A stretch of DNA of 64,000 nucleotides, from the NCBI GenBank assembly GCA_013177825.1, contig JABLXX010000003.1, positions 62,001 to 126,000 of the forward strand, given 5' to 3'. The notes beneath the pieces are model-generated. The model made no database searches. It was not told the origin of the DNA and saw only the letters and a program-made list of their open reading frames with translations. This document shows positions 13,381-55,198 of this stretch, piece after piece (positions within the stretch are counted from its first letter, which is position 1; the number at the start of each line of letters is the position of its first letter). The position numbers and the translations under genes were made by a program. Source of the DNA: Syntrophaceae bacterium. GTDB taxonomy: Bacteria; Desulfobacterota; Syntrophia; Syntrophales; PHBD01.

Positions 13381-13773
13381 ATGAACCGGATCAGAGAGGA
13401 AAGAGGCTTGGCCGTCTCCTGTGTTTTTGCCGTTCTTGTCTGCTTCCTCGCGGCCGTATCCGTCCATGGGACGGAACAGGCTGCTCCGGCCGCCGCCGGA
13501 CTCGAGAGGCACCAGAAGGCGGGCCTGACCTGCAAGAGCTGCCACAAGGAGGAGCCGCCGAAGACCGTCGTGCCGGGCGACCAGTGCATGACCTGCCATG
13601 GAGACTTGGCGAAACTCATCCAGAAGAGCAGCAAGGCCGTTCCCAACCCCCACGCGTCACCCCACATCAACCCGGGCGAGCAGCCCAAATGCGAAGACTG
13701 TCATCACATCCATAAACCGTCGGAAATCAGCTGTCTCAACTGTCACCAGGATTTCAAGTACAAGATGCCGTAA
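13381..13773 (+). CDS. exported tetrahaem cytochrome c
   Basis: 130 residues with an N-terminal signal peptide (hydrophobic 11-28). Four CxxCH haem-binding motifs are present: CKSCH (51), CMTCH (69), CEDCH (104) and CLNCH (118), with further histidines at 44, 91, 95, 109 and 111 that can be second ligands. This is the size and haem count of the cytochrome domain of Shewanella flavocytochrome c3. The next gene is a Tat-exported flavoprotein, so the two genes together encode the split equivalent of a flavocytochrome. Periplasmic electron delivery to the flavoprotein is inferred. Confidence 0.85.
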   Translation: MNRIREERGLAVSCVFAVLVCFLAAVSVHGTEQAAPAAAGLERHQKAGLTCKSCHKEEPPKTVVPGDQCMTCHGDLAKLIQKSSKAVPNPHASPHINPGEQPKCEDCHHIHKPSEISCLNCHQDFKYKMP

Positions 13774-13950
13774 AGGCGGGCCTCGGGAGGCGGAAGATTC
13801 CATTCCAAGCTCCCGATCGTGTTTCGTACGGACGTGGCGAAATCGCGGGAAATCCCTTTCCCTGCCGCTGTCTTTTGCACCGGTGGCGACGGGAGGCGGT
13901 GGATGTGCGATTTCGCATGAAGGGCACTGTTCAGAAGAAGGGAGGCAGGT

Positions 13951-15465
13951 ATGGAGAAGGACAGATTCGGTTCCGTAAACAGGAGGCAGTTCATTCGGGG
14001 TCTGGGGCTGGGTGCGGGGCTGCTCACCCTGGGCAGGATCGACATGGCGCAGGCTTCCCTGCTGCCGAAGGCCAAAAGGACTGAAAAATTCAACGTCGTT
14101 GTCATCGGGACGGGATTCTCCGGGATGGTGGCTGCCGTTGCGGCCTCGAACATGGGCGCCAAAGTGGCCGTGCTGGAGAAGATGCCGGAGAAGGGGCAGG
14201 GCGGCAACTCGATCCTTGCGGGAGGGCTCATCGCGGTGCCCCGGGAAAACAGCCAGGCCGCAAGGGACGAGTACTTCGAGGACTTCATGAAGAAGAGCTC
14301 GGGCAAGGGGAATGCGACGCTGTCCCGGGTGCTGGCCGAACAGTCCATGGACGCCGTCATGTGGCTGAAGGGGCTGGGTGCCGACCTGACCGACCCGATC
14401 ACCGTGGCGGGCTATCGCGTCAAAAGCGTGGTTTTCAAGCCCGGCGCATACAGAGGGATGCCCAAGGGGCTGGAGACGCTCCGGAAGAATCTGAACGGGA
14501 AGGGCGGAAAAATCATTTATGATACCAAGGCCAAGCAGCTGATCATGAACGACAGGGGCGCCGTCGTCGGCGTCCGGGCGGAAGACATGGCGGGACTCAA
14601 GGATTTCATGGCCGATGCGGTGATCATCGCTTCGGGCGGCTACGGAGGAAACCGCGAGATGCTGGAGACCTTCGTCGATCCCAACGCCGACGACATGATG
14701 GTGCGCGGCGTGAAGACGGCGACCGGCGACGGGCTGAACATGGCCCGCGAGGCCGGCGCGATGTGGGTCAACATGGGAGGCATGGCGTCCGTCCATGTGG
14801 CGGCCGTTTCACCGAAGAACACGGCGGCGGGCAATCCCTTCATGGCCATCGCCTATACCCTGGGAATCAACCGGGACGGGAAGCGCTACGTCGACGAATC
14901 CCTGGGGTACGTCGCCAACGGCAAGGCCTCGATGAAGCAGCCCGGCCAGGTCGTGGCCATGATTTTCGACGAGGAGATCAAGAAGCAGGCCGGTGTCGCC
15001 GCCTCGGTGAAGCAGTTTCAAGGCCTCGGCATCGACATCGTGGAAGCGGGCTCCCTGGGCGAACTGGCCTCCAAAATCGGCGTTCCCGCCGCGGCCCTGG
15101 AGAAGACCGTCGCCGACTTCAACGCGGCCGTGAAGGATGGAAAGGCCATGGATGCACAACCCGCCAAGGCCGCCTTCGCATTCAAGGTCGAGGCGCCGAA
15201 GTTCTACGCCTTCTACCCCCTGTCACCGGGGATCACGCTCACCTTCGGCGGGATCCGGACCAACGAAAGGGCCCAGGCCCTGGAAGCGGACGGCAAGATC
15301 ATCCCGGGCCTCTATGCCTCGGGCGAGTGCGCCGGCGGACTCTATTACGAGGACTACATCGGCGGCGCATCCCTGGCGAACTGCCTCGTGATGGGGCGCA
15401 TCGCCGGACAGCAGGCGGCCGGGGCGAAGGCGCCGGCAAAGAAGGGGATGAAGAAGAAAGGCTGA
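13951..15465 (+). CDS. Tat-exported FAD flavoprotein, fumarate-reductase-like enoate reductase
   Basis: 504 residues. A twin-arginine signal (VNRRQFIRGLGLGAG) precedes an FAD domain (VVVIGTGFSGMVAAVAA) and the usual ending (IPGLYASGECAGGL...GGASLANC). This is the fumarate reductase/succinate dehydrogenase flavoprotein fold without its own haem domain; the tetrahaem cytochrome is encoded just upstream. The residues that bind fumarate in Shewanella Fcc3 appear changed: the HH before the GG motif is TL here (SPGITLTFGG), and the usual HGANRLGG reads YYEDYIGG. The substrate is therefore probably another unsaturated acid. A lysine-rich tail ends the protein. Confidence 0.82.
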   Translation: MEKDRFGSVNRRQFIRGLGLGAGLLTLGRIDMAQASLLPKAKRTEKFNVVVIGTGFSGMVAAVAASNMGAKVAVLEKMPEKGQGGNSILAGGLIAVPRENSQAARDEYFEDFMKKSSGKGNATLSRVLAEQSMDAVMWLKGLGADLTDPITVAGYRVKSVVFKPGAYRGMPKGLETLRKNLNGKGGKIIYDTKAKQLIMNDRGAVVGVRAEDMAGLKDFMADAVIIASGGYGGNREMLETFVDPNADDMMVRGVKTATGDGLNMAREAGAMWVNMGGMASVHVAAVSPKNTAAGNPFMAIAYTLGINRDGKRYVDESLGYVANGKASMKQPGQVVAMIFDEEIKKQAGVAASVKQFQGLGIDIVEAGSLGELASKIGVPAAALEKTVADFNAAVKDGKAMDAQPAKAAFAFKVEAPKFYAFYPLSPGITLTFGGIRTNERAQALEADGKIIPGLYASGECAGGLYYEDYIGGASLANCLVMGRIAGQQAAGAKAPAKKGMKKKG

Positions 15466-17468: not shown

Positions 17469-18833
17469 TCATCCCTTCAGCTTCCGGTAGAGCCTGGACC
17501 TCGGCATGTTGAGGATCTTCGCCGCCCGGGACTTGTTTCCCTTCGTCTCCTTCAGGGCCGACAGGATCAGCGACCGTTCGTGGGAGGTGTATTCCTCCCA
17601 GGCGCTCGATGCGGTCTTCTCTTCCGCGGCATGGGACCCGAGAAGGGTGCGAACGTCCTCCGAGGTGATGCTGTCCGCGTGGGAGAGGATCGTCAGCCTC
17701 TCCACCAGGTTCCGCAGCTCCCGGACGTTGCCCGGCCAGGAATACCGCTTCAGGTCCTCCAGGGCGTCCGTCGTGAAATCCTTGTTCAGCTTGTATTTCT
17801 GATTCATCCGCGCGAGGAAGTGCCTGGCCATCGGCCAGATATCCTCGGGTCTTTCCCGGAGCGGCTTGATTTTGAGGGGGAAGACGTTCAGGCGGTAAAA
17901 GAGATCCTCCCGGAATGACCCCCTGCGCACCTCCGATTCCATGTCCCGGTTGGTGGCGGAGATGATCCGGATGTTGACGTGCAGCGGCCGGATCCCGCCG
18001 ACTCTCGTGATCTCGCCGGTCTCGATGGCCCGGAGGATCTTCACCTGGATCCGGTAGGGGATGTCTCCGACCTCATCCAGGAAGAGCGTCCCGTCCCGGG
18101 CGATCTCGAACAGCCCGACCTTGCCCCCCTTTGCGGATCCCGTAAACGCCCCCTCCTCGTAGCCGAACAGCTCCGACTCCAGGAGATTCTCCGGGATCGC
18201 GGGAATGCTGATGGGAATGAACGGCGCATCACGGCGCGGGCTGTTCATGTGGATGATCTTGGCCAGCACTTCCTTGCCGACGCCCGATTCGCCCGAGATG
18301 AGGACGGTGCATTCCGTCGGGGAGATCCGCTTCACCGCCTCGAGCATGGCCTTCATCTGGGGGCTTTCGAAGACGAAATCGGACTCGATCAGCAGGACCT
18401 TGCGCAGGTGCTCGATCTCGCGCAGGTATTGATCGGCCTTGCGCCGCTCGCTGTCGAGCATCAGCTTCAGCTCGTTCAGCTCGTTGAGGACCGTCGAGGT
18501 CACGACCAGGAATTTCAGCTCCCCCTGCTCGTCGAAGATGGGGCGGCAGCGCGACAGGGCCTCCAGCCCGTTGCGGCCGTGGATGATGTCGCAGACCTCG
18601 CTCCGGGTCCGGATCGTCTCCTCGACGACGCTCTTGTCGTAATACCCCTCGCTGATGATCTGCCGGGTCGTCTTGCCGACCCAGTCTTCGGGCCGGATCC
18701 TGAGGTAATCGCAAAGGGCCCGGTTGACCATGACGACCCGGGTGTCGGGGCCGTAGACGGCCACGATGTCCGTAAGGCTGTCCAGGACCTTGGTGAGGTT
18801 GTCCCGGACCTCTTTCATCAGCAATTGATCCAT
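17469..18833 (-). CDS. sigma-54-dependent activator with PAS sensor domain
   Basis: About 454 residues from ATG 18833, chosen because GGAG lies seven bases upstream; longer in-frame starts to 19058 lack a site and run through the divergent promoter. Order: a PAS domain (about 15-125, LTDIVAVYGPDTRVVMVNRA), a short coiled coil, the AAA+ domain with Walker A GESGVGKE and Walker B LFLDEVGD, and a Fis-type HTH at the end (NKSRAAKILNMPRSRLYRKL). The sigma-54 contact loop reads GAFTGS rather than GAFTGA. It is divergent from the dehydrogenase/BKACE genes, which have a sigma-54-type promoter, so it very likely controls them in response to a ligand sensed by PAS. Confidence 0.88.
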   Translation of the reverse strand: MDQLLMKEVRDNLTKVLDSLTDIVAVYGPDTRVVMVNRALCDYLRIRPEDWVGKTTRQIISEGYYDKSVVEETIRTRSEVCDIIHGRNGLEALSRCRPIFDEQGELKFLVVTSTVLNELNELKLMLDSERRKADQYLREIEHLRKVLLIESDFVFESPQMKAMLEAVKRISPTECTVLISGESGVGKEVLAKIIHMNSPRRDAPFIPISIPAIPENLLESELFGYEEGAFTGSAKGGKVGLFEIARDGTLFLDEVGDIPYRIQVKILRAIETGEITRVGGIRPLHVNIRIISATNRDMESEVRRGSFREDLFYRLNVFPLKIKPLRERPEDIWPMARHFLARMNQKYKLNKDFTTDALEDLKRYSWPGNVRELRNLVERLTILSHADSITSEDVRTLLGSHAAEEKTASSAWEEYTSHERSLILSALKETKGNKSRAAKILNMPRSRLYRKLKG

Positions 18834-18847
18834 GGGCTGCTCCATTC

Positions 18848-18897
18848 TGTCCCGTATTGTCCGTCTGACCGGAGGCAATATGGGGCAAATCGGGACA
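18848..18897. promoter_or_regulatory. inverted repeat, possible upstream activator site
   Basis: TGTCCCG at 18848-18854 and CGGGACA at 18891-18897 form an inverted pair. Inside it, CCGTATTG and CAATATGG form a second inverted pair. The site is about 95-145 bases upstream of the sigma-54-type promoter at 18992, the usual place for an activator-binding site. Confidence 0.5.
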
Positions 18898-18991
18898 TCC
18901 GGCAACCCCTCTTTTTCGCCGCGGGATAAGCCGATACGCGAATCGCCCGATATCCATGGCGTATTTGCCACGGCACGAACCGCGCGCAGGA

Positions 18992-19007
18992 TGGCACGCT
19001 CGTTGAT
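18992..19007 (+). promoter_or_regulatory. sigma-54 (-24/-12) promoter for the dehydrogenase/BKACE operon
   Basis: TGGCACG-CTCG-TTGAT matches the consensus TGGCACG-N4-TTGCW except for one base in the -12 element. It is 54 bases upstream of the start codon at 19061 and is flanked by the divergent sigma-54 activator gene. Confidence 0.65.
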
Positions 19008-19060
19008 GGGACAATTTTGGCCGGATCGGTCCAACATCACCGGCAAAGGAGGAAACATGC

Positions 19061-20029
19061 ATGGGTGAAGCAGAGAACAGAGCGGTTGCGGTACTGGGGG
19101 GCGGCGGTGTCATCGGATCGAGCTGGGCGACCAATTTCCTGTGGAGAGGCCTGCCCGTGAATGTCTACGACGTCGGCGAGGACTGCCTGAAGACCGCCCG
19201 GGAGCGGGTCGGGGCAAACCTGGACTACCTCGTCGGCAAGGGCCTGCTGCCGCCCGGGAAGAGGGACGAAGCCCTGAAGAGGGCCGTTTATACGACGGAC
19301 ATCGCGGAAGCTCTCCGGGACGTCCGTTTCATCCAGGAGGCGGCCCCGGAGAAGTATGAGGTCAAGCAGGCCCTCCTGGCGGAAGTGGACCGGTATGCCC
19401 CCGCCGACGCGGTTTTCGCCAGCAGCACCTCGGGCCTCCTGATTTCGGAGATCGCCCGGGACTCCGCGCATCCCGAGCGCTGCGTCGGTGCGCATCCCTA
19501 CAACCCGGCCCACCTGATCCCGCTCGTGGAAATCGGGAAGGGCGAGAAGACGTCCGAGGAGACGGTCCGGAAGGCCTGCGATTTCTACAAATCCCTCGGG
19601 AAGGATCCCATCGTGCTGCAGAAGGAGGCCTTCGGCTTCATCGCCAACCGGCTCGCCGTTGCCCTGTATCGCGAGGCCGTCGACCTGGTCGTGCGCGGCG
19701 TCTGCACCCTGGAGGACGTGGACAAGGCGGTGTGCCTGGGGCCGGGACTGCGATACGCGCTGATGGGGCCGAACCTGGGCTATCACCTGAGCGGCGGCGT
19801 GCATGGGATCCGGGGCGTCCTGACCCACATCGGCCCGACGGTCGAGTGGTGGTGGGAAGACATGGCCGCCTGGCATCGCTGGCCCGCCGGCTGGACCGAG
19901 CAGGCCCAGGCGGGGGTGCTCGAGGCCATGGCCAACCGCGATCCCGCGACGGGCCGCACGCCGGAGGAGATCAACCGCTGGCGCGACGACGGCCTGCTTC
20001 TGATCCTCAAGTACCTGAACAAGATCTGA
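19061..20029 (+). CDS. 3-hydroxyacyl-CoA dehydrogenase-fold enzyme, carnitine dehydrogenase-like
   Basis: 322 residues, AAAGGAGG eight bases before the ATG. The Rossmann motif VAVLGGGGVIGSSWA is followed by SSTSGLL (about 125-131), the HPYNP catalytic-histidine motif and EAFGFIANRL. Length and these motifs are closest to L-carnitine dehydrogenase and L-gulonate-type enzymes rather than fatty-acid HADH (which has a different C terminus). It should oxidise a beta-hydroxy acid to a beta-keto acid with NAD. The next gene is a BKACE enzyme that cleaves beta-keto acids, the same pair as in bacterial carnitine breakdown. The betainyl-CoA thioesterase of that pathway is not seen here, so the natural substrate is open. 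Confidence 0.8.
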   Translation: MGEAENRAVAVLGGGGVIGSSWATNFLWRGLPVNVYDVGEDCLKTARERVGANLDYLVGKGLLPPGKRDEALKRAVYTTDIAEALRDVRFIQEAAPEKYEVKQALLAEVDRYAPADAVFASSTSGLLISEIARDSAHPERCVGAHPYNPAHLIPLVEIGKGEKTSEETVRKACDFYKSLGKDPIVLQKEAFGFIANRLAVALYREAVDLVVRGVCTLEDVDKAVCLGPGLRYALMGPNLGYHLSGGVHGIRGVLTHIGPTVEWWWEDMAAWHRWPAGWTEQAQAGVLEAMANRDPATGRTPEEINRWRDDGLLLILKYLNKI

Positions 20030-20057
20030 GACGGTAACGCCGTCGAAAGGAGAGAAT

Positions 20058-21032
20058 ATGGATCACATCTGGGACCACAGGGACATTTACGAGTACGACA
20101 GGAAGCTCAAGGACGGCATGCCGCCCCTGATCATCTCCGTCGCCATCACCGGCGGCGCCGCCGGCAAGGAAGTAAATCCGAACCTGCCGGAGACCCCCGA
20201 GGAGCAGGCAAAGTCCGTCCTGGAGGCCTATCAGGCCGGGGCGTCGGCCGTCCACATCCACGCCCGCGATCCCCTGAAGGGCTATGCCTATTCGTCGGTC
20301 AATCCCGCACACTACCTGGAGATCAACCGGCGCGTCCGGGCGCTCTGTCCGGACATCATCATCAACAACACGACCGGCGCCGGGGCGGGGAACCTCACGG
20401 CGGAGGAGCGGATGCGGTCCCTCGATGCCGGCCCCGAGGTGGCCTCCCTGAACTGCGGGCCCATCATCCTCAAAGGGACCCTGCCGAGGCGGAAGGCGCC
20501 GCTGACGGGGCGCGACGAGCCGATGAACCTCGACGGGTTCATCATCCCCGTCACGGTCTCCGAGATCGAGCTCTTCGCGAAGACCATGACGGAACGGAAC
20601 GTCAAGCCCGAGATGGAGGTCTACAACCCCCAGCAGTTCAACTTCGTGAACATCCTCATCGAGCAGAAGATGATCCGGCCGCCCTACTGGTTCAGCCTCA
20701 TCTTCTCCAACGCCTCCGGCGGCATCGGCGTCTCTTCGCACCCCCGCAACATCGTCAACATGATCGACGCCCTGCCGAAGGAGTCGATCTTCCAGTGCAT
20801 CGGTGTCGGCCCGACGCAGCTCTTCGTCAACACGATGTCGATCATCAGCGGCGGCCACGTCCGGGTGGGCATGGAGGACAGCGTCCTGTACGGGCGGGGG
20901 AAACTCCTGGAGAGCAACGCCCAGGCGGTGGAGCGCATCGTCCGGCTGGCGAAGGAACTGGGCCGGGAAGTAGCCACGCCGGCCGTGGCGAGGAAGATGC
21001 TGGGCATCTCGGAGACGCCCTCGCAGTATTGA
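20058..21032 (+). CDS. BKACE beta-keto acid cleavage enzyme (DUF849)
   Basis: 324 residues with AAAGGAG before the ATG. The zinc-binding HIHARD motif lies at about residues 66-71, and the C-terminal half keeps SGGHVRVGMEDSV, which supplies conserved active-site residues in the family. BKACE enzymes take a beta-keto acid plus acetyl-CoA and give acetoacetate plus a new acyl-CoA; members act on 3-keto-5-aminohexanoate, dehydrocarnitine and others. It is 28 bases after the dehydrogenase gene and shares its sigma-54 promoter. Together the two would convert a beta-hydroxy acid to acetoacetate and an acyl-CoA. Confidence 0.88.
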   Translation: MDHIWDHRDIYEYDRKLKDGMPPLIISVAITGGAAGKEVNPNLPETPEEQAKSVLEAYQAGASAVHIHARDPLKGYAYSSVNPAHYLEINRRVRALCPDIIINNTTGAGAGNLTAEERMRSLDAGPEVASLNCGPIILKGTLPRRKAPLTGRDEPMNLDGFIIPVTVSEIELFAKTMTERNVKPEMEVYNPQQFNFVNILIEQKMIRPPYWFSLIFSNASGGIGVSSHPRNIVNMIDALPKESIFQCIGVGPTQLFVNTMSIISGGHVRVGMEDSVLYGRGKLLESNAQAVERIVRLAKELGREVATPAVARKMLGISETPSQY

Positions 21033-31532: not shown

Positions 31533-33110
31533 TTATCGCTTGCCCTCCATGGCCTTGGTCAGGACGTCGATGCCCTGCCGGGAGGCGATGATGGAGGCGG
31601 CCAGGCTTTCCCTCGCCAGCTCCGGGTTGTGCCAGCCGTCGCTGTTCTCGGCGGTCCACCATTCCCAGAGGACGTGCGCCTCTTCGTGCTTCTCCCGGGC
31701 CTGTGCGAGGGCTGATTCGGGAACCCCCGTTCTCCGGGCCGTCTCGTAGGTGTCGATCAGTTTCCCCAGCCAGTACTCGGCCTTCCGCATTTTGCCCTTC
31801 GTGTAGTTCTGGACCGTCTCGATCTGGTAGCGCTTCTCTTCCGCCGTGGATTTGGGATGGCAGCCCAGGCAGGCCTCCCGGACCGAGTGGATGGGCCGGA
31901 CGACGGCGTGGGTCGTGTAGCTCTTCCCCGATCCGGCCTTGACCTTCGGCATGTGGCACTGGTGGCACTGGACGCCGGCCCGGTCGTGGGTGCTGCCCCA
32001 GTAGGTCTCCGTCTCCGGGTGCTGCAGCTTGACCAGCCGGGCGCCCGTCACGGCATGCCGGAAATCGTAGAAGTTCACCTTCTTGTAATGGGCCAGGATG
32101 TCCTTCGCGTTCTTCATCGGGTAATGGTTCGTGCGACGGTCCTCGTAGCCCACCTTCTTCCCCGTGGCGAACTCGAACCCGGCGTTGCAGGCGTATTCCA
32201 CGTGGCACTGGGCGCACATCATCCGGGAGTCGGTCTTGCCCAGGACGCCGATCTTCCGGAAGCCCCGGAAATCGACCACCTTCATGTCCGTCTTCCCGTT
32301 CCGGGCGAAGGTCTGCGCGCCTTCCCGGTCGACCGCCTCGATGAGGGCGTCCCGGACGACCCGGGGGGCGGCGCCGTGGCCGTCATGGCAGTGAATGCAG
32401 CCCATGGGGTTCTGCGTCGCCTTGGACATCGCGACGATATCGGACCCCCGGTCCCACTTCGCTTTCGGATCCTTGTCGCCCATGTGCTTCCAGGTCAGGA
32501 TGTGGTCGGAGGTCTTGCACTGGATGCAGGTGGCGTTCCCGGCCTTCGCGGTCTCGGGCAGCTCCCGGCCCGTGTCGACCAGGACGTCCCAGGCCCGGCC
32601 GGTCTGGTTGATGCCGGCAAAGCCCTTCTTGTGCTGGAAGCGGCCGCCGATGAAGCGGTCCACCACGAACTGGTCGGTCAGCATGAAGACGTGCGCCCGC
32701 GGCTCGTTGTGCTCCTTCGTGAAGCCGTGGGGAGCCAGGAGCTTGTCCTGCATGGGGGAGCGGCCGGCGGGCACGCCTTTTTCCTTGCGGGCCTGGGCCT
32801 GGTAGTTGACCATCCGGAAGCTCTCGAACTGGTCGCTGTGGCACCGGCCGCAGACGGGCTGGTCGACGGCCAGCGCGGCCGGCTTGTTGCTGGATTTCTG
32901 CAGGTGCTCCTTCATGCCGCTGTGGCAGGTGCCGCAGGCGAGGGGCGCGTGCCTGGATCCTTCTTTCAGGGATTTGATCTGGGGATGGCATCGGTAGCAG
33001 GTTTCCCGGGAGTCCCCGGCGCCGTTCTTCTGGGCTGTCGAAAATGCCGGAATCAAGAGGGCGATCGACAGGGCGGCCAGGACGACGAATCCGATGTTCC
33101 GTCTGCGCAT
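31533..33110 (-). CDS. octahaem cytochrome c nitrite reductase (ONR/TvNiR-like)
   Basis: 525 residues from ATG 33110 (AAAGGAGG upstream) with an N-terminal signal peptide. Eight haem motifs: C38YRCH, C59GTCH, C87GRCH, C195IQCK, C238IHCH, C299AQCH, C382HQCH and C414LGCH. The fourth is CxxCK, the lysine-ligated catalytic haem of NrfA and of octahaem nitrite reductases, where it is also number four. The catalytic Tyr306 (CHVEYAC) and His364 (LQHPE) regions match NrfA. Cys308 two residues after the tyrosine matches the Tyr-Cys cross-link seen in Thioalkalivibrio TvNiR. The periplasmic enzyme reduces nitrite (and other N/S oxyanions) to ammonia with six electrons. No NrfH-type quinol partner is encoded beside it. 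Confidence 0.9.
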   Translation of the reverse strand: MRRRNIGFVVLAALSIALLIPAFSTAQKNGAGDSRETCYRCHPQIKSLKEGSRHAPLACGTCHSGMKEHLQKSSNKPAALAVDQPVCGRCHSDQFESFRMVNYQAQARKEKGVPAGRSPMQDKLLAPHGFTKEHNEPRAHVFMLTDQFVVDRFIGGRFQHKKGFAGINQTGRAWDVLVDTGRELPETAKAGNATCIQCKTSDHILTWKHMGDKDPKAKWDRGSDIVAMSKATQNPMGCIHCHDGHGAAPRVVRDALIEAVDREGAQTFARNGKTDMKVVDFRGFRKIGVLGKTDSRMMCAQCHVEYACNAGFEFATGKKVGYEDRRTNHYPMKNAKDILAHYKKVNFYDFRHAVTGARLVKLQHPETETYWGSTHDRAGVQCHQCHMPKVKAGSGKSYTTHAVVRPIHSVREACLGCHPKSTAEEKRYQIETVQNYTKGKMRKAEYWLGKLIDTYETARRTGVPESALAQAREKHEEAHVLWEWWTAENSDGWHNPELARESLAASIIASRQGIDVLTKAMEGKR

Positions 33111-33338
33111 GCCGGACCTCCTTTGTCTTGTCGTTCCGTTGTCGGCTGGTGAACCTGGTTGCGGCGCCGAATCTTGCGGAGACCCGGCAACACGGCCTGC
33201 CGGATATTCCAAAACCCTCCCGGGGGAAAACACCCGCGGGACGGTCGGGAGACGAAGGGCGGATGGCAAATCGGGCTCCATCATCGACGAATGCCTGCCC
33301 GATGTCAAGAATTGCGGCCACCATCGGCCCGGATGCAT

Positions 33339-33385
33339 AATTGAGCACAGTAAGTCGACAAAATGTCGACATACCATGCTCAATT
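33339..33385. promoter_or_regulatory. nested palindromic operator of AbiE pair 2
   Basis: Two inverted repeats share one centre at 33362: an outer pair AATTGAGCA (33339-33347)/TGCTCAATT (33377-33385) and an inner pair GTCGACA (33354-33360)/TGTCGAC (33364-33370). All arms are perfect. It lies 36 bases before the antitoxin start and is very likely the autoregulatory AbiEi site; it is also between the divergent reductase and TA promoters. Confidence 0.7.
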
Positions 33386-33420
33386 GTGCTATTTTCTCCG
33401 AAAACCTGACGGACACCTCC

Positions 33421-34080
33421 ATGATCCAGAACATCCGAAACCGCATCACCGGCGAGGAATTCGACTACCAGGCCCTGCTGGACACCTTGCAGCAGTATGC
33501 CCGTCCGCGTGACAAGATCTCGGATCTCCTCCGGCGGGGCGACATCGTTCGCATCAAGAAGGGCATCTACATTTTCGGCTCCGCTTATGCCCGCAGGCCT
33601 TACTCGCGCGAGATCCTGGCGAACATGCTCTACGGGCCGTCCTATGTTTCCCTCGACTACGCCCTGCACTATCACGGCCTGATCCCGGAGCGGACGGAGG
33701 CCGTCACGTCGATGACCTGCGGCCGGAACAGGCGTTTTGCCACGCCCGTGGGCCTCTTTATCTATCGGTCCGTGCCGTTGGCAGGCTACCCTGAGGGGAT
33801 CGACCGTGTGGAAATCGAAGGAGGACGGGCGTTTCTCATGGCGACGCGGGAAAAGGCACTGGCGGACCGGATCCGGGACGACCGGCGCTCGGGCGTTCGT
33901 TCCATGGGCGACATGCGGCGATATCTCCTGGAAAGCCTGAGGATCGATCCGGCCGGCCTGGCGGGCATGGATCCTTCCCGGCTGGAAGCAATGGCGGGCC
34001 TTTACCGCTCCCGGCGGATCCGCCTCGCCGCTTCCGTCGTACGCCAACTGGGTGGAGAGGAGAAGCTGCCGCATGAATGA
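33421..34080 (+). CDS. AbiEi-type antitoxin/regulator, type IV TA pair 2
   Basis: 219 residues from ATG 33421. An ATG at 33376 is in frame but lies inside the operator palindrome, so it is rejected. The N-terminal winged helix (about 20-55, LDTLQQYARPRDKISDLLRR, then GDIVRIKKGIYIFG) and the following YVSLDYALHYHGLIPE segment are the standard AbiEi_4-type pattern. It controls its own promoter and neutralises the toxin encoded directly downstream (8-base overlap). It is a different subtype from the 340-residue antitoxin of pair 1. Confidence 0.82.
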   Translation: MIQNIRNRITGEEFDYQALLDTLQQYARPRDKISDLLRRGDIVRIKKGIYIFGSAYARRPYSREILANMLYGPSYVSLDYALHYHGLIPERTEAVTSMTCGRNRRFATPVGLFIYRSVPLAGYPEGIDRVEIEGGRAFLMATREKALADRIRDDRRSGVRSMGDMRRYLLESLRIDPAGLAGMDPSRLEAMAGLYRSRRIRLAASVVRQLGGEEKLPHE

Positions 34081-48147: not shown

Positions 48148-51100
48148 TTGAGAGACACCGATAAAACAAGGGAACAGCTCATCGAGGAACTGGAGGCCCT
48201 TCGCCGGCGGCTCGCCGGGACAGACAACCCGGGCGAAGACGGTCGCGGTGAAGCGGGAGGATACTCGGGGTTCTCCACCTTCCATGAATTTCTCCTGGAG
48301 AGCATCGACGAAGGAATCTGGGTGGCCGACCGGCACGACCGGATTCTTTTCGCCAACAGCCTGGTGGTAAAGATCACGGGCATTCCGAAGGAGCGGATGA
48401 CCGGGATCGACGTCCTTTCAGACCGGGTCCAGGACCGATGGAGCGAACTCCAGTCCCTCTACCGGAACGCGAAAAGCAGCCTCCGCCCGGTCATCTACGA
48501 TAACACGCCCGTTCAGACCCCGGGCGGTTTGATCCTGCTTTCCGGCAAGCTGGTGCCGGTTTTGGCGGACGGCCGTTTCCACGGAATGATCTGTACGGCC
48601 AGCGACGTAACGGAGCTCCGGCAGGCGGAGGAGGCGTTGACTCATGCGGAGGAGCGCTTTGCCACCGCCTTTCGCTCCAGTCCCGACGCCATCGTGATCA
48701 GCCGGGAAAGTGACGGCTGGATCATCGATTTGAACGACGCCTGGGAGACCGTTACCGGATACAGCCGCCGGGAGTCACTCGGCCGGAGCTCTAATGACCT
48801 GGGAATATTCATTCGTCCGGAGCAGCGGCGTGAACTGGCCGAGAGGATCGCCGAACAGGGGCAGCTGCAGGATTACGAGATGGAAATCCGTCACAAGTCG
48901 GGAGAACTGCGACGGGTAAGCCTGTCGGTGGGGCGGATCCGGCTCCAGCATCAGGAATATATGCTGAGCATCATCCGCGACGTCACGGAGCGCAAGCGCA
49001 CGGAAGAAGCGCTCCGCGAGAGCGAGGAACGTTTCCGCAAAGCCTTTCTGACGAGTCCGGACGCCATCAATATCAACCGGTTCGATGATGGAACCTATGT
49101 CGACGTAAATGAAGGATTCATGGCCCTGACGGGTTTCACGCGGGAGGATGTCGTCGGGAAAACCTCCGTGGAATTGAATGTCTGGGTCGATCCGGCGGAC
49201 CTGAGGAAGCTGATCGACGGGTTGAGGGAACACGGGCGGGTCAGCAATATGGAGGTCCGGTTCCGGATGAAGGACGGTACCATCTTGGCCGGCTTGGTGT
49301 CCGCCACGATTCTGACATTGAAGGGAGAGACACACGTCCTCTGCGTCACGCGTAACGTCGAGGAAATGAAGAAGACCCAGGATGCGCTGCGCGACCGGGA
49401 GGAAAAATACCGGGGACTGTTCGAAAACGCCCTGGTGGGGATTTACCAGTCCACTCCCGAAGGCCGGTTCCTGTCGGCGAACCCGGCCCTGGCCCGGATC
49501 TATGGATACGATTCCCCCGAAGATCTGATCGAAAGCGTCACGGACATCGCAACGCAGATCTTCTTGGATCCCGGGGACCGCACAGAGATCCTGCGCATCA
49601 TGGATGCCGATGGAGTTCTCCCGGCCTACGATGTCTGGCACCGCCGGAAGGACGGGACACCCGTCCGGCTGTCCCTGCATTCGCGGGGCATCCGGGACGA
49701 GACGGGATGCATCGTCCGCCTGGACGGTCTGGCGGTGGACATTACCGAACAAAAGCGGGCTGAAGATGAGCTGCGGCGCCGGGAAGAGATCCTCAGCGGC
49801 ATCTTCAAAGCGACCCCGATCGGCCTGTGCATCATGAAAGACCGTGTGTTTGAGAGCGCCAACAAGGCCTGGTATGACGTCTACGGCTATTCCGAATCCG
49901 AAATGATCGGTCATACGCCACGCATGCTGTATGACGATGAAGAGGAATATCGGCGCGTCGGACGGGAGCTGTATGCGGGCCTCGCGGAGCGCGGTCTGGC
50001 CATGGCCAGAACAAGACTGATGCGGAAAGATGGAGTGTTTCGGGATTCCATCCTGATTGCCGCTCCTCTCCCGTCGGACGACGAGGCCCTGCGTGCAATC
50101 GTTGCGATCCAGGATGTGACGGAGCAGACGCGCATCCTGGAAGAACTGCGGGAGAGCCGCCGGCAGCTGAGGGATATCATCGAATTCCTGCCCGACGCGA
50201 CCCTCGTCGTCGACCAGGAGGGCAGGGTCATCGCGTGGAACCGGGCGATTGAAAACATGACGGGCATCAAGGCGGAGGAGATGATCGGCAAGGGGGATTA
50301 TGAATACGCCCTTCCCTTTTACGGCTTCCGGAGACCCATCCTGATCGATCTCGCGCTTCATCCGGACCGGGATATGGAGCGGCAATACACGGCCATCCAC
50401 AGGGTGGGGGAGATCCTGTTCGGCGAAGCCTATACGCCGAACCTTCCGCCCGGTGACCGGCACCTGTCTGCCACCTCCTCCGTCCTTCGCGACTCCAGGG
50501 GCCAGATCACCGCCGCCATCGAGTGCATCCGGGACAACACGGAGCGGAAACGGATGGAGGAACGGCTGAACCGGGCGGAGAAGATGGAAATCCTCGGCAG
50601 GTTGGCCGGTGGCGTGGCCCACGACCTCAACAACGTCTTGGGCGTGCTGACCGGATATTCGGAGCTGCTGGCGGAGAAGCTTCCCGAGGGCTCCCCCACG
50701 AGAAAGTATGCCGAAAACATATTGCAGTCCAGCATCCGGGGAGCCGCCATCATCCAGGACCTGCTGACCCTGGCCAGGAGAGGGGTGGCCGTTTCCGAAG
50801 TGGTCAACCTGAGCCGTGTGGTTTTCGATTATCTCCGGACGCCGGAATTCGAGAAACTGAAAGCAGGCCATCCGGCCGTGAAAATCTGGACCAACCTCGA
50901 TCCCGAGAACCAGCTTCTGAACATCAAGGGGTCTCCTGTTCACCTGGGCAAGACGGTGATGAACCTGGTCTCGAACGCCGTGGAGGCCATTTACGGCGAC
51001 GGGGAGGTGACAATCCGGACGGAAAACCGGTACCTGGACCGGCCGATCAGGGGGTATGACGATGTGAATGAAGGGGATTACGTCGTGCTCACCGTGTCCG

Positions 51101-51720
51101 ACAGCGGAAAGGGGATCTCCGCGCAGGACATCGGGAAGATCTTCGATCCCTTCTACACGAAGAAGGTGATGGGGAGGAGCGGCACAGGACTGGGACTGAC
51201 CGTCGTCTGGGGAACCGTGAAGGATCACAGCGGGTATATCGACGTGCATAGTGAAGAGGGGAAAGGGAGCACGTTCTCGGTCTATTTCCCGGTGACGAGG
51301 GACGAGCCCTCGGCCGCCGGTGCAAAAATGGAGATGTCCGCCTACATGGGGCGGGGCGAGTCCCTCCTGGTCGTCGACGACATGAAGGATCAGAGGGAAG
51401 TGGCCACGAGCATGCTGAAACGGCTCGGCTATCGGGTCGAGGCGGCCTCCAGCGGGGAGGAGGCCGTGGAGCGTATCAGGGAGAAGCCTTTCGGCCTGGT
51501 CGTCCTCGACATGATCATGGACCCGGGCATGGACGGCCTGGAGACCTACCGGAAAATCGTTGAGATCCGGCCGAAGCAGAAAGCCGTGATTGTGAGCGGA
51601 TTCTCCGAGTCCGACCGGGTCAGGCAGGTCCTGGAACTCGGCGCCGGTGTTTTTGTCAGGAAGCCTTACATCCTGGAGAAAATCGGTGCCGCCATTCGCA
51701 GCGAACTGGACCGGAAATAG
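48148..51720 (+). CDS. hybrid histidine kinase with multiple PAS domains (copy 1)
   Basis: 1190 residues from TTG 48148 with AAAAGGAG upstream. About six PAS domains fill residues 40-810, each ending in a DVTE-x-(K/R)-R-type motif. The kinase core follows: H-box GGVAHDLNNVLGV (H825), N-box MNLVSNAVEAI, G1 VSDSGKGIS and G2 GRSGTGLGL. A receiver domain at the end has acceptor D1121 (LVVLDMIMDPGMDG). No membrane segment is seen, so it is a cytoplasmic sensor. The downstream gene is a close paralogue. The target of the receiver is not encoded nearby. Confidence 0.9.
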   Translation: MRDTDKTREQLIEELEALRRRLAGTDNPGEDGRGEAGGYSGFSTFHEFLLESIDEGIWVADRHDRILFANSLVVKITGIPKERMTGIDVLSDRVQDRWSELQSLYRNAKSSLRPVIYDNTPVQTPGGLILLSGKLVPVLADGRFHGMICTASDVTELRQAEEALTHAEERFATAFRSSPDAIVISRESDGWIIDLNDAWETVTGYSRRESLGRSSNDLGIFIRPEQRRELAERIAEQGQLQDYEMEIRHKSGELRRVSLSVGRIRLQHQEYMLSIIRDVTERKRTEEALRESEERFRKAFLTSPDAININRFDDGTYVDVNEGFMALTGFTREDVVGKTSVELNVWVDPADLRKLIDGLREHGRVSNMEVRFRMKDGTILAGLVSATILTLKGETHVLCVTRNVEEMKKTQDALRDREEKYRGLFENALVGIYQSTPEGRFLSANPALARIYGYDSPEDLIESVTDIATQIFLDPGDRTEILRIMDADGVLPAYDVWHRRKDGTPVRLSLHSRGIRDETGCIVRLDGLAVDITEQKRAEDELRRREEILSGIFKATPIGLCIMKDRVFESANKAWYDVYGYSESEMIGHTPRMLYDDEEEYRRVGRELYAGLAERGLAMARTRLMRKDGVFRDSILIAAPLPSDDEALRAIVAIQDVTEQTRILEELRESRRQLRDIIEFLPDATLVVDQEGRVIAWNRAIENMTGIKAEEMIGKGDYEYALPFYGFRRPILIDLALHPDRDMERQYTAIHRVGEILFGEAYTPNLPPGDRHLSATSSVLRDSRGQITAAIECIRDNTERKRMEERLNRAEKMEILGRLAGGVAHDLNNVLGVLTGYSELLAEKLPEGSPTRKYAENILQSSIRGAAIIQDLLTLARRGVAVSEVVNLSRVVFDYLRTPEFEKLKAGHPAVKIWTNLDPENQLLNIKGSPVHLGKTVMNLVSNAVEAIYGDGEVTIRTENRYLDRPIRGYDDVNEGDYVVLTVSDSGKGISAQDIGKIFDPFYTKKVMGRSGTGLGLTVVWGTVKDHSGYIDVHSEEGKGSTFSVYFPVTRDEPSAAGAKMEMSAYMGRGESLLVVDDMKDQREVATSMLKRLGYRVEAASSGEEAVERIREKPFGLVVLDMIMDPGMDGLETYRKIVEIRPKQKAVIVSGFSESDRVRQVLELGAGVFVRKPYILEKIGAAIRSELDRK

Positions 51721-52003
51721 TGAAAAAATAGGTCAGCAATATCAGGGGAATAATTACTCCTTGCAATTGTCAGGCAATTGTGATGGCACTTCCCGCGCCT
51801 GCAAGAAAGCAACATCCCCCGAAACAGATCGGTCCGTCCTCGGTTGTCTGTAGCACTCGTTCGGATGAATTCCATTGTTCAGGTAGGCGGAAGAGCCCTG
51901 TGTAAGGCCATGCATATTTAGCATAGCCATAGAAGCAGCGAAACAACACGCCGTTTTCCCGGGACGGCGCAATCCTTGTTCATTGGGCTGCGGAGGAGGA
52001 ATC

Positions 52004-55000
52004 GTGAGCGGCGGTGACGGAAAGAAAGACCCGTTTGACGGGGAAGTGGCGATTCCTCAGGAATGGCATGAAAAATCGGAATGTCCTGAAGGACTCCGCC
52101 TGGAGACGGGAGCCCCTTTTGCGGACCCCGCTGCTTTCTACAGGCTTCTCCTGGAGAATATCGATGAAGGGATCCTGGTGACGGACAGAGACGACAGAAT
52201 CGTCTTCGTGAACGACCCGATGGCGAGAATTGCCGGTGTTCCGAAAGAACAGATCATGGGTGCCGTCATCGTAAGGAACTTTCCCGAAGACACGCTGAAG
52301 TATTTCCGACCCCAATATCTTGCGGCCAGGGAAACCCTCCGGTCCGTTTCTTTCGACGGCATTCCCGTCGTCACCCCGGCAACCAGGAAGACCTTCCAGT
52401 CGGGAAGCATGGTTCCCCTGATCCATGACGGCCGATACGACGGCATGATCTGCACGATCCACGACGTCACCGACCGCCGGAGCGCCGAGGAGGCCCTCCG
52501 GGAGAGCGAGTACAAGTACAGGCTCATCACCGAAAAAATGACGGACATCGTCTGGATTGCAGACATGAACCTGCAGACCGTCTACGTGACTCCCTCGGTA
52601 CAGACGGTGCTGGGATATACCCGGGAAGAGCGGATGTGCCAGAGCATTACGGAGCAATTCACGCCGGATTCCCTGGCCTTCGGACTGGAGGCCATGGCCG
52701 GGGAACTTGCCATGGAGGAACAGGGGAAGGGGGACCCCGCCAGGACCGCAACGCTGGTTCTGGAATATCTCCACAAGGACGGCTCGACCCGCTGGATGGA
52801 AACCCTCATGAGCGGGATCCGCGACGAGCGGGGCATGCTGATCGGGCTTCACGGCGTTTCCCGGGACGTCACCGGCCACAGGCGGGCCGAGGAGGCGCTG
52901 CGCAGGAGCGAGGAGTATTTCCGCGCCATCACCGAGAATGCCTCCGACATCCTGTTCATAACGGATGAATGGGGAGTCATCCGCTATGTGACGCCGTCCG
53001 TCGAGCGCATCGCCGGCTATCGGCCGGATGAGCTGCTCGGGACAAGCACGTTCGACCTGTTTGTGCCGGAAGATCTTCCCAGGGCCGTCGCGGATTTTGA
53101 AAAGGCCCTCCGGACGAAGGACGTCGCCATACCAAACCGTTTCCGAATCCGGCACAAAGACGGGTCCGAGCGCATCATGGAGGGGGTCGGCAAGAATCTC
53201 CTGCACAATCCTGCCATTGCGGGATTTGTGGTGAACGTCCGCGACGTCACCGAGCAGAGACGCGTCGAGGAAGCCCTGCGGGCGACGGAGGAGCGATTCC
53301 GGCTGATCACGGAAAACGTGCAGGACACCGTCTGGCTCATGGACAAGAACCTGAAACTCACCTGGATATCCCCGTCGGTGGAACGGATGCAGGGCTATAC
53401 CGCGGAGGAGCTGCTCGGACTCCCCCTGGAGCGGCAGGTAACCCCGGAATCCCTCCAGGCAGCTTTCGGATTGATCGAAAAAAATCTCGTCCCGGAAAGG
53501 ATTGCCAATCCCCGGGACGAGATCACGGCATCGATGGACCTGGAGGTCTACCGGAAGGACGGATCCACGTTCTGGGCCGAAGCGGTCATCACGATGCTCC
53601 GGGACGGACAGGGTGCCCCGGTCGGTTTCCTCGGCATTTCCCGGGACACGACCGAGCGCCGGGCGATGGAATTGGCGCTGCGGGAAAGCGAGGAAAAGCA
53701 TCGCCTGCTGTTCGCGAGCGCCGGGGAGGGGATCATGATCATCCAGGATGAAGTGACCCGTCTGGCCAACCCGGCCCTTTCCCAGATCCTGGGCTACCCG
53801 ATCGAGACAATCACGTCGCGGCGATTCGGGGCCTTCATCCATCCGGATGACCGCGACATGGTCATCGACCGCCACCGGCGACGGATGCGCGGGGAGGCGG
53901 TGGAAACGGGCTATCCGTTCCGGATCGTGACGGCGGACGGCAGGGAGAAGTGGGTGGAGATCCATTCCCGCCGGATCGTCTGGGATGATGCTCCGGCTTC
54001 CCTGAGCTTTGTCATGGACATTACGGAGCGCAGGCAGATGGAGGAGCGCCTGGCCCGTGTCGAGAAGATGGAGGCCCTGGGCACCCTGGCAGGCGGCGTG
54101 GCCCACGACCTGAACAACGTCCTGGGAGTTCTGGTCGGCTACTCGGAGCTGCTGGCGGAAAAGCTGCCGGAGGGCAGCCAGATGAGGCGGCATGCAGAAA
54201 ACATCCTGCAGTCGGGCATCAAGGGAGCGGCCATCATCCAAGACCTGCTGACCTTGGCCAGGAGGGGGGTCGCCGTCTCGGAAGTCGTCGATCTGAACGG
54301 GATCGTCGAGGATTATCTCCGATCGCCGGAATATGAAAAACTGACTTCCTATCACGGGGAAGTCGTCGTCCGCCCGGAGCTTGCCGAAGGGTTGCTGAAT
54401 ATCAAGGGGTCGCCGGTTCACCTGGGAAAGACGGTGATGAACCTGGTGTCGAATGCCATGGAAGCCATATCCGGAAAGGGGATCGTCACGATCCGGACGG
54501 AAAACCGCTACCTGGACCACCCTGTCCAAGGCTACGATGAGATGCAGGAGGGGGATTACGTCGTGCTTACCGTCTCCGACTCGGGCCGGGGCATCGCCCC
54601 CCGGGACATCGGCAAGATCTTCGAGCCCTTCTACACGAAGAAGGTCATGGGGAGAAGCGGCACGGGCCTGGGGCTGGCCGTCGTCTGGGGAACCGTGAAG
54701 GATCACAGCGGCTATATCGACGTCCAGAGCGAAGAGGGCGCCGGGACCACCTTCACCCTTTATTTCCCGGTGACCCGGGACGTCCCGGCGACGGCCGTGG
54801 AGCCCCATTCGCAACCTTCCTTCCTGGGCAGGGGGGAATCCATCCTTGTGGTCGACGACGTTCAGGAGCAGCGGGAACTGGCCGCCAGCATGCTGGGGAG
54901 GCTCGGGTACCGGGTGGATACGGTTTCCTCCGGGGAGGAGGCGGTTGCCTGGTTGAGCAGGAACAGGGCCGATCTGATCGTGCTGGACATGATCATGGAA

Positions 55001-55198
55001 CCGGGCATGGACGGACTGGAGACCTACCGGCGGATCGTCGAGATCAGCCCGGGCCAGAGGGCAGTCATTGTCAGCGGTTTTTCGGAGACGGAGCGGGTGC
55101 GCAAGGCCCTGGACATCGGCGCCGGCGAGTTTGTCAAAAAGCCGTACATCATGGAAATCATAGGGCTTGCCATCAGAAGGGAACTGGACCGGAAATAA
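52004..55198 (+). CDS. hybrid histidine kinase with multiple PAS domains (copy 2)
   Basis: 1064 residues from GTG 52004, chosen because GGAGGAGG is four to five bases upstream; an in-frame TTG at 51983 would lack a site. Four to five PAS domains (about 30-680) precede an H-box GGVAHDLNNVLGV (H701), the ATPase motifs (MNLVSNAMEAI, VSDSGRGI, GRSGTGLGL) and a receiver with D995 (IVLDMIMEPGMDG). The core from the H-box onwards is almost the same as in copy 1, so this is a tandem duplication; the PAS parts differ more. No membrane helix is seen. Confidence 0.9.
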   Translation: MSGGDGKKDPFDGEVAIPQEWHEKSECPEGLRLETGAPFADPAAFYRLLLENIDEGILVTDRDDRIVFVNDPMARIAGVPKEQIMGAVIVRNFPEDTLKYFRPQYLAARETLRSVSFDGIPVVTPATRKTFQSGSMVPLIHDGRYDGMICTIHDVTDRRSAEEALRESEYKYRLITEKMTDIVWIADMNLQTVYVTPSVQTVLGYTREERMCQSITEQFTPDSLAFGLEAMAGELAMEEQGKGDPARTATLVLEYLHKDGSTRWMETLMSGIRDERGMLIGLHGVSRDVTGHRRAEEALRRSEEYFRAITENASDILFITDEWGVIRYVTPSVERIAGYRPDELLGTSTFDLFVPEDLPRAVADFEKALRTKDVAIPNRFRIRHKDGSERIMEGVGKNLLHNPAIAGFVVNVRDVTEQRRVEEALRATEERFRLITENVQDTVWLMDKNLKLTWISPSVERMQGYTAEELLGLPLERQVTPESLQAAFGLIEKNLVPERIANPRDEITASMDLEVYRKDGSTFWAEAVITMLRDGQGAPVGFLGISRDTTERRAMELALRESEEKHRLLFASAGEGIMIIQDEVTRLANPALSQILGYPIETITSRRFGAFIHPDDRDMVIDRHRRRMRGEAVETGYPFRIVTADGREKWVEIHSRRIVWDDAPASLSFVMDITERRQMEERLARVEKMEALGTLAGGVAHDLNNVLGVLVGYSELLAEKLPEGSQMRRHAENILQSGIKGAAIIQDLLTLARRGVAVSEVVDLNGIVEDYLRSPEYEKLTSYHGEVVVRPELAEGLLNIKGSPVHLGKTVMNLVSNAMEAISGKGIVTIRTENRYLDHPVQGYDEMQEGDYVVLTVSDSGRGIAPRDIGKIFEPFYTKKVMGRSGTGLGLAVVWGTVKDHSGYIDVQSEEGAGTTFTLYFPVTRDVPATAVEPHSQPSFLGRGESILVVDDVQEQRELAASMLGRLGYRVDTVSSGEEAVAWLSRNRADLIVLDMIMEPGMDGLETYRRIVEISPGQRAVIVSGFSETERVRKALDIGAGEFVKKPYIMEIIGLAIRRELDRK

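What the first reader, a model, noticed from the sequence alone, without database searches (positions are those of the whole stretch)
13381..15465. Split flavocytochrome whose flavoprotein lacks the fumarate-binding residues
A tetrahaem cytochrome and a Tat flavoprotein are encoded side by side, like a divided Shewanella Fcc3. By eye, the two His before the GG motif and the Arg of HGANRLGG are replaced (TL and Y). The enzyme is then unlikely to act on fumarate; another enoate, perhaps an aromatic one, is more likely as periplasmic electron acceptor.
Basis: partly seen in the sequence, partly recalled or inferred. Interest (0 to 1): 0.55.

Follow-up and report, generated by a model that had tools for sequence, protein, structure and literature searches.

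The report
Exported TcuA-like flavoprotein with tetrahaem cytochrome
Two neighbouring genes look like a divided fumarate reductase, but the flavin enzyme's active site is of the tricarballylate-dehydrogenase type, so this anaerobe probably uses it to discharge electrons outside the cell membrane onto a different, still unidentified unsaturated compound.

Summary
A Sec-exported tetrahaem cytochrome (13381-13773) is followed by a Tat-exported FAD protein (13951-15465). The Fcc3 residues His503, His504 and Arg544 are T429, L430 and Y469.

This is not a damaged Fcc3. In 54 homologues the two positions nearly always change together: 23 are Tyr/Tyr, 21 Arg/Arg. The tree places the six-member window clade with TcuA (tricarballylate dehydrogenase) at 95/99.9 support, and rejects a window+Fcc3-type clade (AU p = 1.6e-5). 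Window clade, a small related pair and TcuA (17 of 17) share R252-G253, a hinge His, Y320, T429 and Y469. The two Tyr coincide with Tyr318 and Tyr487 of 3-ketosteroid dehydrogenase. The hinge His (H282) aligns with Fcc3 His365, so one fumarate-site residue is probably kept.

Best reading: an exported, cytochrome-linked cousin of TcuA that reduces an unsaturated acid other than fumarate (aconitate is one candidate), fed by menaquinol through multihaem cytochromes. Substrate and direction are inferred. Structure prediction failed (pLDDT 33), so pocket geometry is untested. New variant of a known kind; moderate interest.

The parts
13381..13773 (+). Tetrahaem c-type cytochrome (130 aa), Sec-type N-terminus, like the haem domain of Fcc3; proposed electron donor
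   Evidence: orthologue adjacent in G059, G154, G049
13951..15465 (+). Tat-exported FAD flavoprotein (504 aa) with a TcuA-type active-site constellation
13978..14001 (+). Twin-arginine motif NRRQFIRG (residues 10-17)
   Evidence: Tat motif in the 5 other clade members
14704..14709 (+). R252-G253, shared with the TcuA set (9 of 9) and the L073 pair (2 of 2); R252 absent in 6 other Tyr/Tyr and 21 Arg/Arg homologues
14794..14796 (+). H282, on Fcc3 His365 by phmmer and hhalign
14908..14910 (+). Y320, in place of the catalytic acid Arg402; equals KstD Tyr318
15235..15240 (+). T429-L430, in place of His503-His504
15355..15357 (+). Y469, in place of Arg544; equals KstD Tyr487

Best explanation
A two-component periplasmic oxidoreductase. 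Menaquinol passes electrons through membrane and periplasmic multihaem cytochromes to the tetrahaem protein, which reduces the FAD of the Tat-exported flavoprotein. Reduced FAD gives a hydride to the beta carbon of an alpha,beta-unsaturated substrate, Y320 gives the proton to the alpha carbon, and Y469 plus the backbone at A473 hold the carbonyl or carboxyl oxygen, as Tyr318, Tyr487 and Gly491 do in ketosteroid dehydrogenase; R252 and H282 hold a second anionic group. The enzyme is an exported, cytochrome-linked relative of TcuA working in the reducing direction, not a fumarate reductase. Shown: gene pair, export signals, haem motifs, family placement, residue equivalences by alignment. Inferred: electron route, direction, role of each residue, substrate (an unsaturated acid, possibly aconitate).
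For: Window clade + L073 pair + TcuA set form one side of a branch at 95/99.9 even with the signature columns left out; window + Arg/Arg clade rejected, p 1.6e-5. TcuA is the best NCBIfam hit (263 bits) and its set gives a higher profile-profile score (599) than the Fcc3 set (455), the other Arg/Arg set (430) or the KstD-like set (295). R252, G253, a hinge His, Y320, T429, Y469 in 17 of 17 of that branch; R252, the His and T429 in 0 of 6 other Tyr/Tyr; R252 in 0 of 21 Arg/Arg. KstD matches. All 6 clade members have Tat motifs (window, five). A tetrahaem gene is directly upstream in 4 of 5 members whose flank can be read, window included. In G049 the pair follows, by about 50 bases, a nine-haem cytochrome-b-like protein, with a homologue in all 6 genomes.
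Against: No structure: the AlphaFold job failed (mean pLDDT 32.8), so whether R252 and H282 reach the pocket is unknown. MAFFT and hhalign disagree on the exact partner of H282. Below every NCBIfam cut-off shown. Direction cannot be read from sequence; TcuA itself oxidises. G040 has the flavoprotein without a neighbouring tetrahaem gene. No conserved neighbour points to a substrate. No NapC/NirT-type quinol dehydrogenase was found in the genome.
Confidence: 0.55

Rival explanations
1. The enzyme runs as a dehydrogenase: it oxidises a saturated acid such as tricarballylate in the periplasm and passes electrons out through the tetrahaem cytochrome to other carriers or a partner cell.
For: The nearest named family, TcuA, works in this direction (title of Lewis and Escalante-Semerena 2006, seen in a reference list; the paper itself is not held). 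Multihaem cytochromes sit next to the pair in G049.
Against: The window's genome carries three Arg/Arg flavoproteins, two beside multihaem genes (L002, L003) and one without a haem gene in the fetched flank (L004), which suggests that such proteins serve as reductases here; the tetrahaem partner resembles the Fcc3 haem domain. Neither point is strong.
Confidence: 0.18
2. One reading: a divided Fcc3-type reductase whose site was altered for an aromatic or other mono-enoate.
For: Fcc3-like layout and tetrahaem partner; conserved aromatic residues in the FYAFYPL and YEDY segments.
Against: A clade with the Fcc3/Arg-Arg group is rejected; R/H/Y/T/Y constellation shared with TcuA. UrdA, which takes an aromatic mono-enoate, keeps Arg411, Arg560 and His520 (passages of PMC7921117).
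Confidence: 0.15
3. A neutral enone, lactone or steroid-like reductase, as the ketosteroid dehydrogenase Tyr pair and Cgr2 might suggest.
For: Y320 and Y469 equal Tyr318 and Tyr487 of KstD1. Cgr2, a digoxin reductase, shares the Tyr/Gly pair with ketosteroid dehydrogenases, though mutating its Tyr did not matter (passages of PMC5953540).
Against: The branch carries an extra Arg and His that the other six Tyr/Tyr proteins lack; KstD score 115 against a cut-off of 788.
Confidence: 0.1

Closest known systems
TcuA, FAD-dependent tricarballylate dehydrogenase (NF006130)
   Same: Best NCBIfam hit; one branch in the tree; same R252-G253, hinge His, Y320, T429, Y469 constellation
   Different: 263 bits against a cut-off of 369; of 8 TcuA-set loci scanned none has haem motifs or haem genes in the fetched flank and 7 have no Tat motif; the Thalassospira TcuA is paired with TcuB; the window protein has a Tat start and a tetrahaem neighbour
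Shewanella flavocytochrome c3 fumarate reductase (Fcc3/Ifc3)
   Same: FAD-protein homology, tetrahaem electron donor, a His at the His365 position by two aligners
   Different: Two polypeptides; Arg402, His503, His504, Arg544 replaced; separate clade
Methacrylate redox system Mrd/Mcc of Geobacter sulfurreducens AM-1 (PMC4427408)
   Same: Tat flavoprotein plus separate tetrahaem cytochrome in one operon (passages read)
   Different: Mrd keeps His461, Arg501 and Arg353, which the paper likens to Shewanella fumarate reductases; no Mrd sequence was aligned here
3-ketosteroid delta1-dehydrogenase (KstD1)
   Same: Tyr318 and Tyr487 positions
   Different: KstD-like L132 lacks the Arg/His/Thr signature; score 115 against a cut-off of 788
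Cgr1/Cgr2 digoxin reductase (PMC5953540)
   Same: Tat flavoprotein with a partner protein, lacks fumarate-reductase residues, Tyr/Gly as in KstD (passages)
   Different: Cgr2 activity depends on [4Fe-4S] clusters (section heading seen); not compared by sequence here

Membership tests
Flavocytochrome c / Fcc3 fumarate reductase (TIGR01813) | Score over the curated cut-off 285.45 | tested here: not met
   252.4 bits
Flavocytochrome c / Fcc3 fumarate reductase (TIGR01813) | Catalytic Arg402 | tested here: not met
   Y320 by phmmer, MAFFT and hhalign
Flavocytochrome c / Fcc3 fumarate reductase (TIGR01813) | His503-His504 and Arg544 | tested here: not met
   T429-L430 and Y469
Flavocytochrome c / Fcc3 fumarate reductase (TIGR01813) | His365 | tested here: inconclusive
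   H282 by phmmer and hhalign; shifted one column in MAFFT
Flavocytochrome c / Fcc3 fumarate reductase (TIGR01813) | Tetrahaem cytochrome domain or partner | tested here: met
   Separate gene, four CxxCH, matches Fcc3 haem domain
Flavocytochrome c / Fcc3 fumarate reductase (TIGR01813) | Same clade as Fcc3 | tested here: not met
   AU p = 1.6e-5 for window clade + Arg/Arg group
TcuA (NF006130) | Score over the curated cut-off 369 | tested here: not met
   263.1 bits
TcuA (NF006130) | Active-site constellation R252-G253/His/Y320/T429/Y469 (defined here, not from a paper) | tested here: met
   17 of 17 in window clade, L073 pair and TcuA set
TcuA (NF006130) | tcuB beside it | tested here: not met
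   No 4Fe-4S protein among the 10 window proteins scanned between 8953 and 22264
TcuA (NF006130) | Converts tricarballylate to cis-aconitate | not testable with these tools
   Needs an assay
KstD (NF005882) | Tyr318 and Tyr487 | tested here: met
   Y320 and Y469
KstD (NF005882) | Score over the curated cut-off 788 | tested here: not met
   114.9 bits
Methacrylate reductase Mrd | His461, Arg501, Arg353 equivalents | tested here: inconclusive
   No Mrd sequence was aligned; the paper likens them to the Fcc3 catalytic residues, which are absent here
Urocanate reductase UrdA | Arg411, Arg560, His520 binding the carboxylate | tested here: inconclusive
   Inferred through the Fcc3 correspondence given in PMC7921117; UrdA itself was only a weaker PDB hit whose alignment was not printed

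The most novel reading that the evidence does not exclude
An aconitate reductase: TcuA chemistry moved to the periplasm, coupled to a tetrahaem cytochrome and reversed, so that Syntrophales-type anaerobes respire cis- or trans-aconitate to tricarballylate. It would be a respiratory flavocytochrome line separate from the Fcc3/UrdA/Mrd line.
Probability: 0.17. Interest if true: 0.62.

Novelty: new variant of a known kind. Interest (0 to 1): 0.42.

Why it matters
Exported flavoproteins of the FAD_binding_2 family are easily named fumarate reductases. This case shows that a two-gene flavocytochrome can be built on a different branch, with a Tyr/Tyr site, and that two alignment columns (Fcc3 402 and 544) separate the two site types almost completely in the sampled set. 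If the reducing direction is right, an anaerobe of syntrophic kin has an electron outlet that current annotation hides.

Tried and rejected
Structure prediction from five near relatives gave mean pLDDT 32.8, pTM 0.28; no fold search was run on it.

Substrate from neighbours: the CoA ligase, BKACE, 3-hydroxyacyl-CoA dehydrogenase and sigma-54 regulator around the window pair suggested carnitine-like metabolism, but none recurs beside the orthologues in G059, G154, G040, G049 and G122 (blastp of neighbour ORFs against a greedy set of window ORFs; that set picked some antisense ORFs in this G+C-rich DNA, so a weak match could have been missed). Loss by decay or chance was rejected because the replaced residues are invariant in six members down to 48% identity (L430 is Ile in one).

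Viral contigs: no relative. Literature: ten searches listed no paper on an exported cytochrome-linked TcuA relative or an aconitate reductase; the term 'aconitate reductase' had no occurrence in the ten papers listed. The library holds few subscription papers, and the TcuA paper PMC1540016 is not held.

Rows dropped: three long-branched rows (Cupri_L133, L007, L054) were left out before the tree and AU test; one search holds them. In one search the duplicate L001 was removed. All homologues come from searches with the window protein or its profile, so the Tyr/Tyr and Arg/Arg counts are not an unbiased sample.

Full report
What is there. At 13381-13773 (+) lies a 130-residue protein with a Sec-type start and four CxxCH motifs. 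Pfam calls it Cytochrom_c3_2, and its best matches among solved structures are the haem domain of Shewanella Fcc3. At 13951-15465 (+) lies a 504-residue FAD_binding_2 protein with a twin-arginine start. The two genes are on one strand, 177 bases apart. The finding's coordinates are right. That the two starts are Sec and Tat signals was judged by eye, not by a predictor.

Residues. It also has Y320 for Arg402, the suggested proton donor of Fcc3 (role as stated in PMC7921117, passages). The PDB list even contains a Fcc3 chain with Tyr at this place, 1jrz (seen in the alignments; that it is an engineered mutant is recalled). H282 falls on Fcc3 His365 in phmmer and hhalign but one column off in MAFFT. 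So the clamp for the reacting carboxylate and the proton donor are gone, while the distal His is probably kept. The numbers 402, 503, 504 and 544 are recalled Fcc3 numbering, fixed to the alignments by motif.

Which branch. I aligned 54 sequences: the window, Ifc3, 48 further homologues from the session's searches, and four plasmid-borne references. At the columns of Arg402 and Arg544, 23 have Tyr/Tyr, 21 Arg/Arg and 10 something else. All 21 Arg/Arg have His at the 503 column; none of the 23 Tyr/Tyr do. In a tree of 51 rows (three long branches left out, seven signature columns removed) the window clade, the pair L073/L078 and nine TcuA-type proteins are one side of a branch (95/99.9); the Arg/Arg group with two relatives is another (99/97). 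Holding the window clade with the Arg/Arg group costs 51 log units (p-AU 1.6e-5). The TcuA set is so named because L071, L081, L082 and the Thalassospira protein L131 pass the NF006130 cut-off, L131 beside tcuB; the other five were put there by motif and tree only.

Shared site. R252-G253, a His within columns 276-284, Y320, T429 and Y469 occur in 6 of 6 window-clade, 2 of 2 L073-pair and 9 of 9 TcuA-set proteins. R252, the His and T429 occur in 0 of 6 other Tyr/Tyr proteins. R252 and T429 occur in 0 of 21 Arg/Arg proteins; a His within 276-284 occurs in 5 of 21. K289 is invariant in the window clade and meets an Arg of the Thalassospira TcuA in hhalign but is not conserved across the TcuA set in MAFFT. 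In the alignment of a KstD-like protein (L132) to solved ketosteroid dehydrogenases, the same two Tyr columns are NESLPY and FYPGPG; counting along that chain and allowing a recalled 20-residue tag gives Tyr318 and Tyr487 of KstD1, whose roles are given in PMC5348764 (passages).

Distribution and context. Orthologues were found in 6 of 155 genomes of the order, the window's own included: G059 86%, G154 84%, G040 70%, G049 65%, G122 48% identity. In a sample of 395 genomes of the phylum only G000 and G040 had one. The scan of genome contigs found four, titled as Syntrophus sp., Syntrophales bacterium, Deltaproteobacteria bacterium and uncultured delta proteobacterium. The tetrahaem gene lies directly upstream in the window, G059, G154 and G049; G040 has none nearby; in G122 the contig ends about 190 bases upstream. 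No other neighbour was found to be shared, so the pair behaves as a self-contained module. In G049 it follows, about 50 bases on, a 628-residue protein with nine haem motifs and a weak cytochrome b561 match (27.4 bits, below the 30.1 cut-off); homologues at 52-56% exist in the five other genomes. NapC/NirT was not found in the window's genome. L073 and L078 also have a tetrahaem gene beside them, so cytochrome pairing occurs in two lines of this branch. Of eight TcuA-set loci scanned, none has haem genes within the fetched flank and seven lack a Tat motif; L082 matched the pattern; L131 was not in that scan.

How it most likely works. Menaquinol, multihaem cytochromes, tetrahaem protein, FAD, substrate: hydride from FAD to the beta carbon, proton from Y320, carbonyl or carboxyl oxygen held by Y469 and the backbone near A473, and R252/H282 holding a second anionic group. 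Only the gene layout, the export and haem motifs, the tree and the alignments are shown. The electron route, direction, residue roles and substrate are inferred. Aconitate is proposed only because TcuA makes cis-aconitate from tricarballylate (title seen).

Verdict. Observation confirmed; interpretation partly supported; a new variant of a known kind: an exported, cytochrome-linked relative of TcuA. The weakest points are the missing structure and the unknown direction.

Noticed in passing
window 31533-33449 (-): Protein of 638 aa matching cytochrome c552 (PF02335), in a genome where no NapC/NirT-type quinol dehydrogenase was found.
   Followed up: no
G000:C3:25148-26842 (L005-L007): A Tat flavoprotein with Ala/Tyr at the two key columns lies beside another tetrahaem gene, about 50 kb from the window pair; neither Arg/Arg nor Tyr/Tyr.
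   Followed up: partly
L139 and L140: In two other genomes of the phylum a Tyr/Tyr flavoprotein with an RRGMMK start is followed by a tetrahaem cytochrome gene, the reverse gene order of the window pair.
   Followed up: partly
L061 and L021: Homologues with Thr/Thr at the two key columns and RK at the His-His place, a third site type.
   Followed up: no
L137:2837-9615: Run of ten-, seven- and nine-haem cytochromes with two rhodanese genes just before the tetrahaem/flavoprotein pair in G049.
   Followed up: partly
window 17469-21032: Sigma-54 regulator next to a carnitine-dehydrogenase-like 3-hydroxyacyl-CoA dehydrogenase and a BKACE enzyme; no match beside the orthologous loci.
   Followed up: partly
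window 48148-55198: Two successive large multi-PAS hybrid histidine kinases.
   Followed up: no
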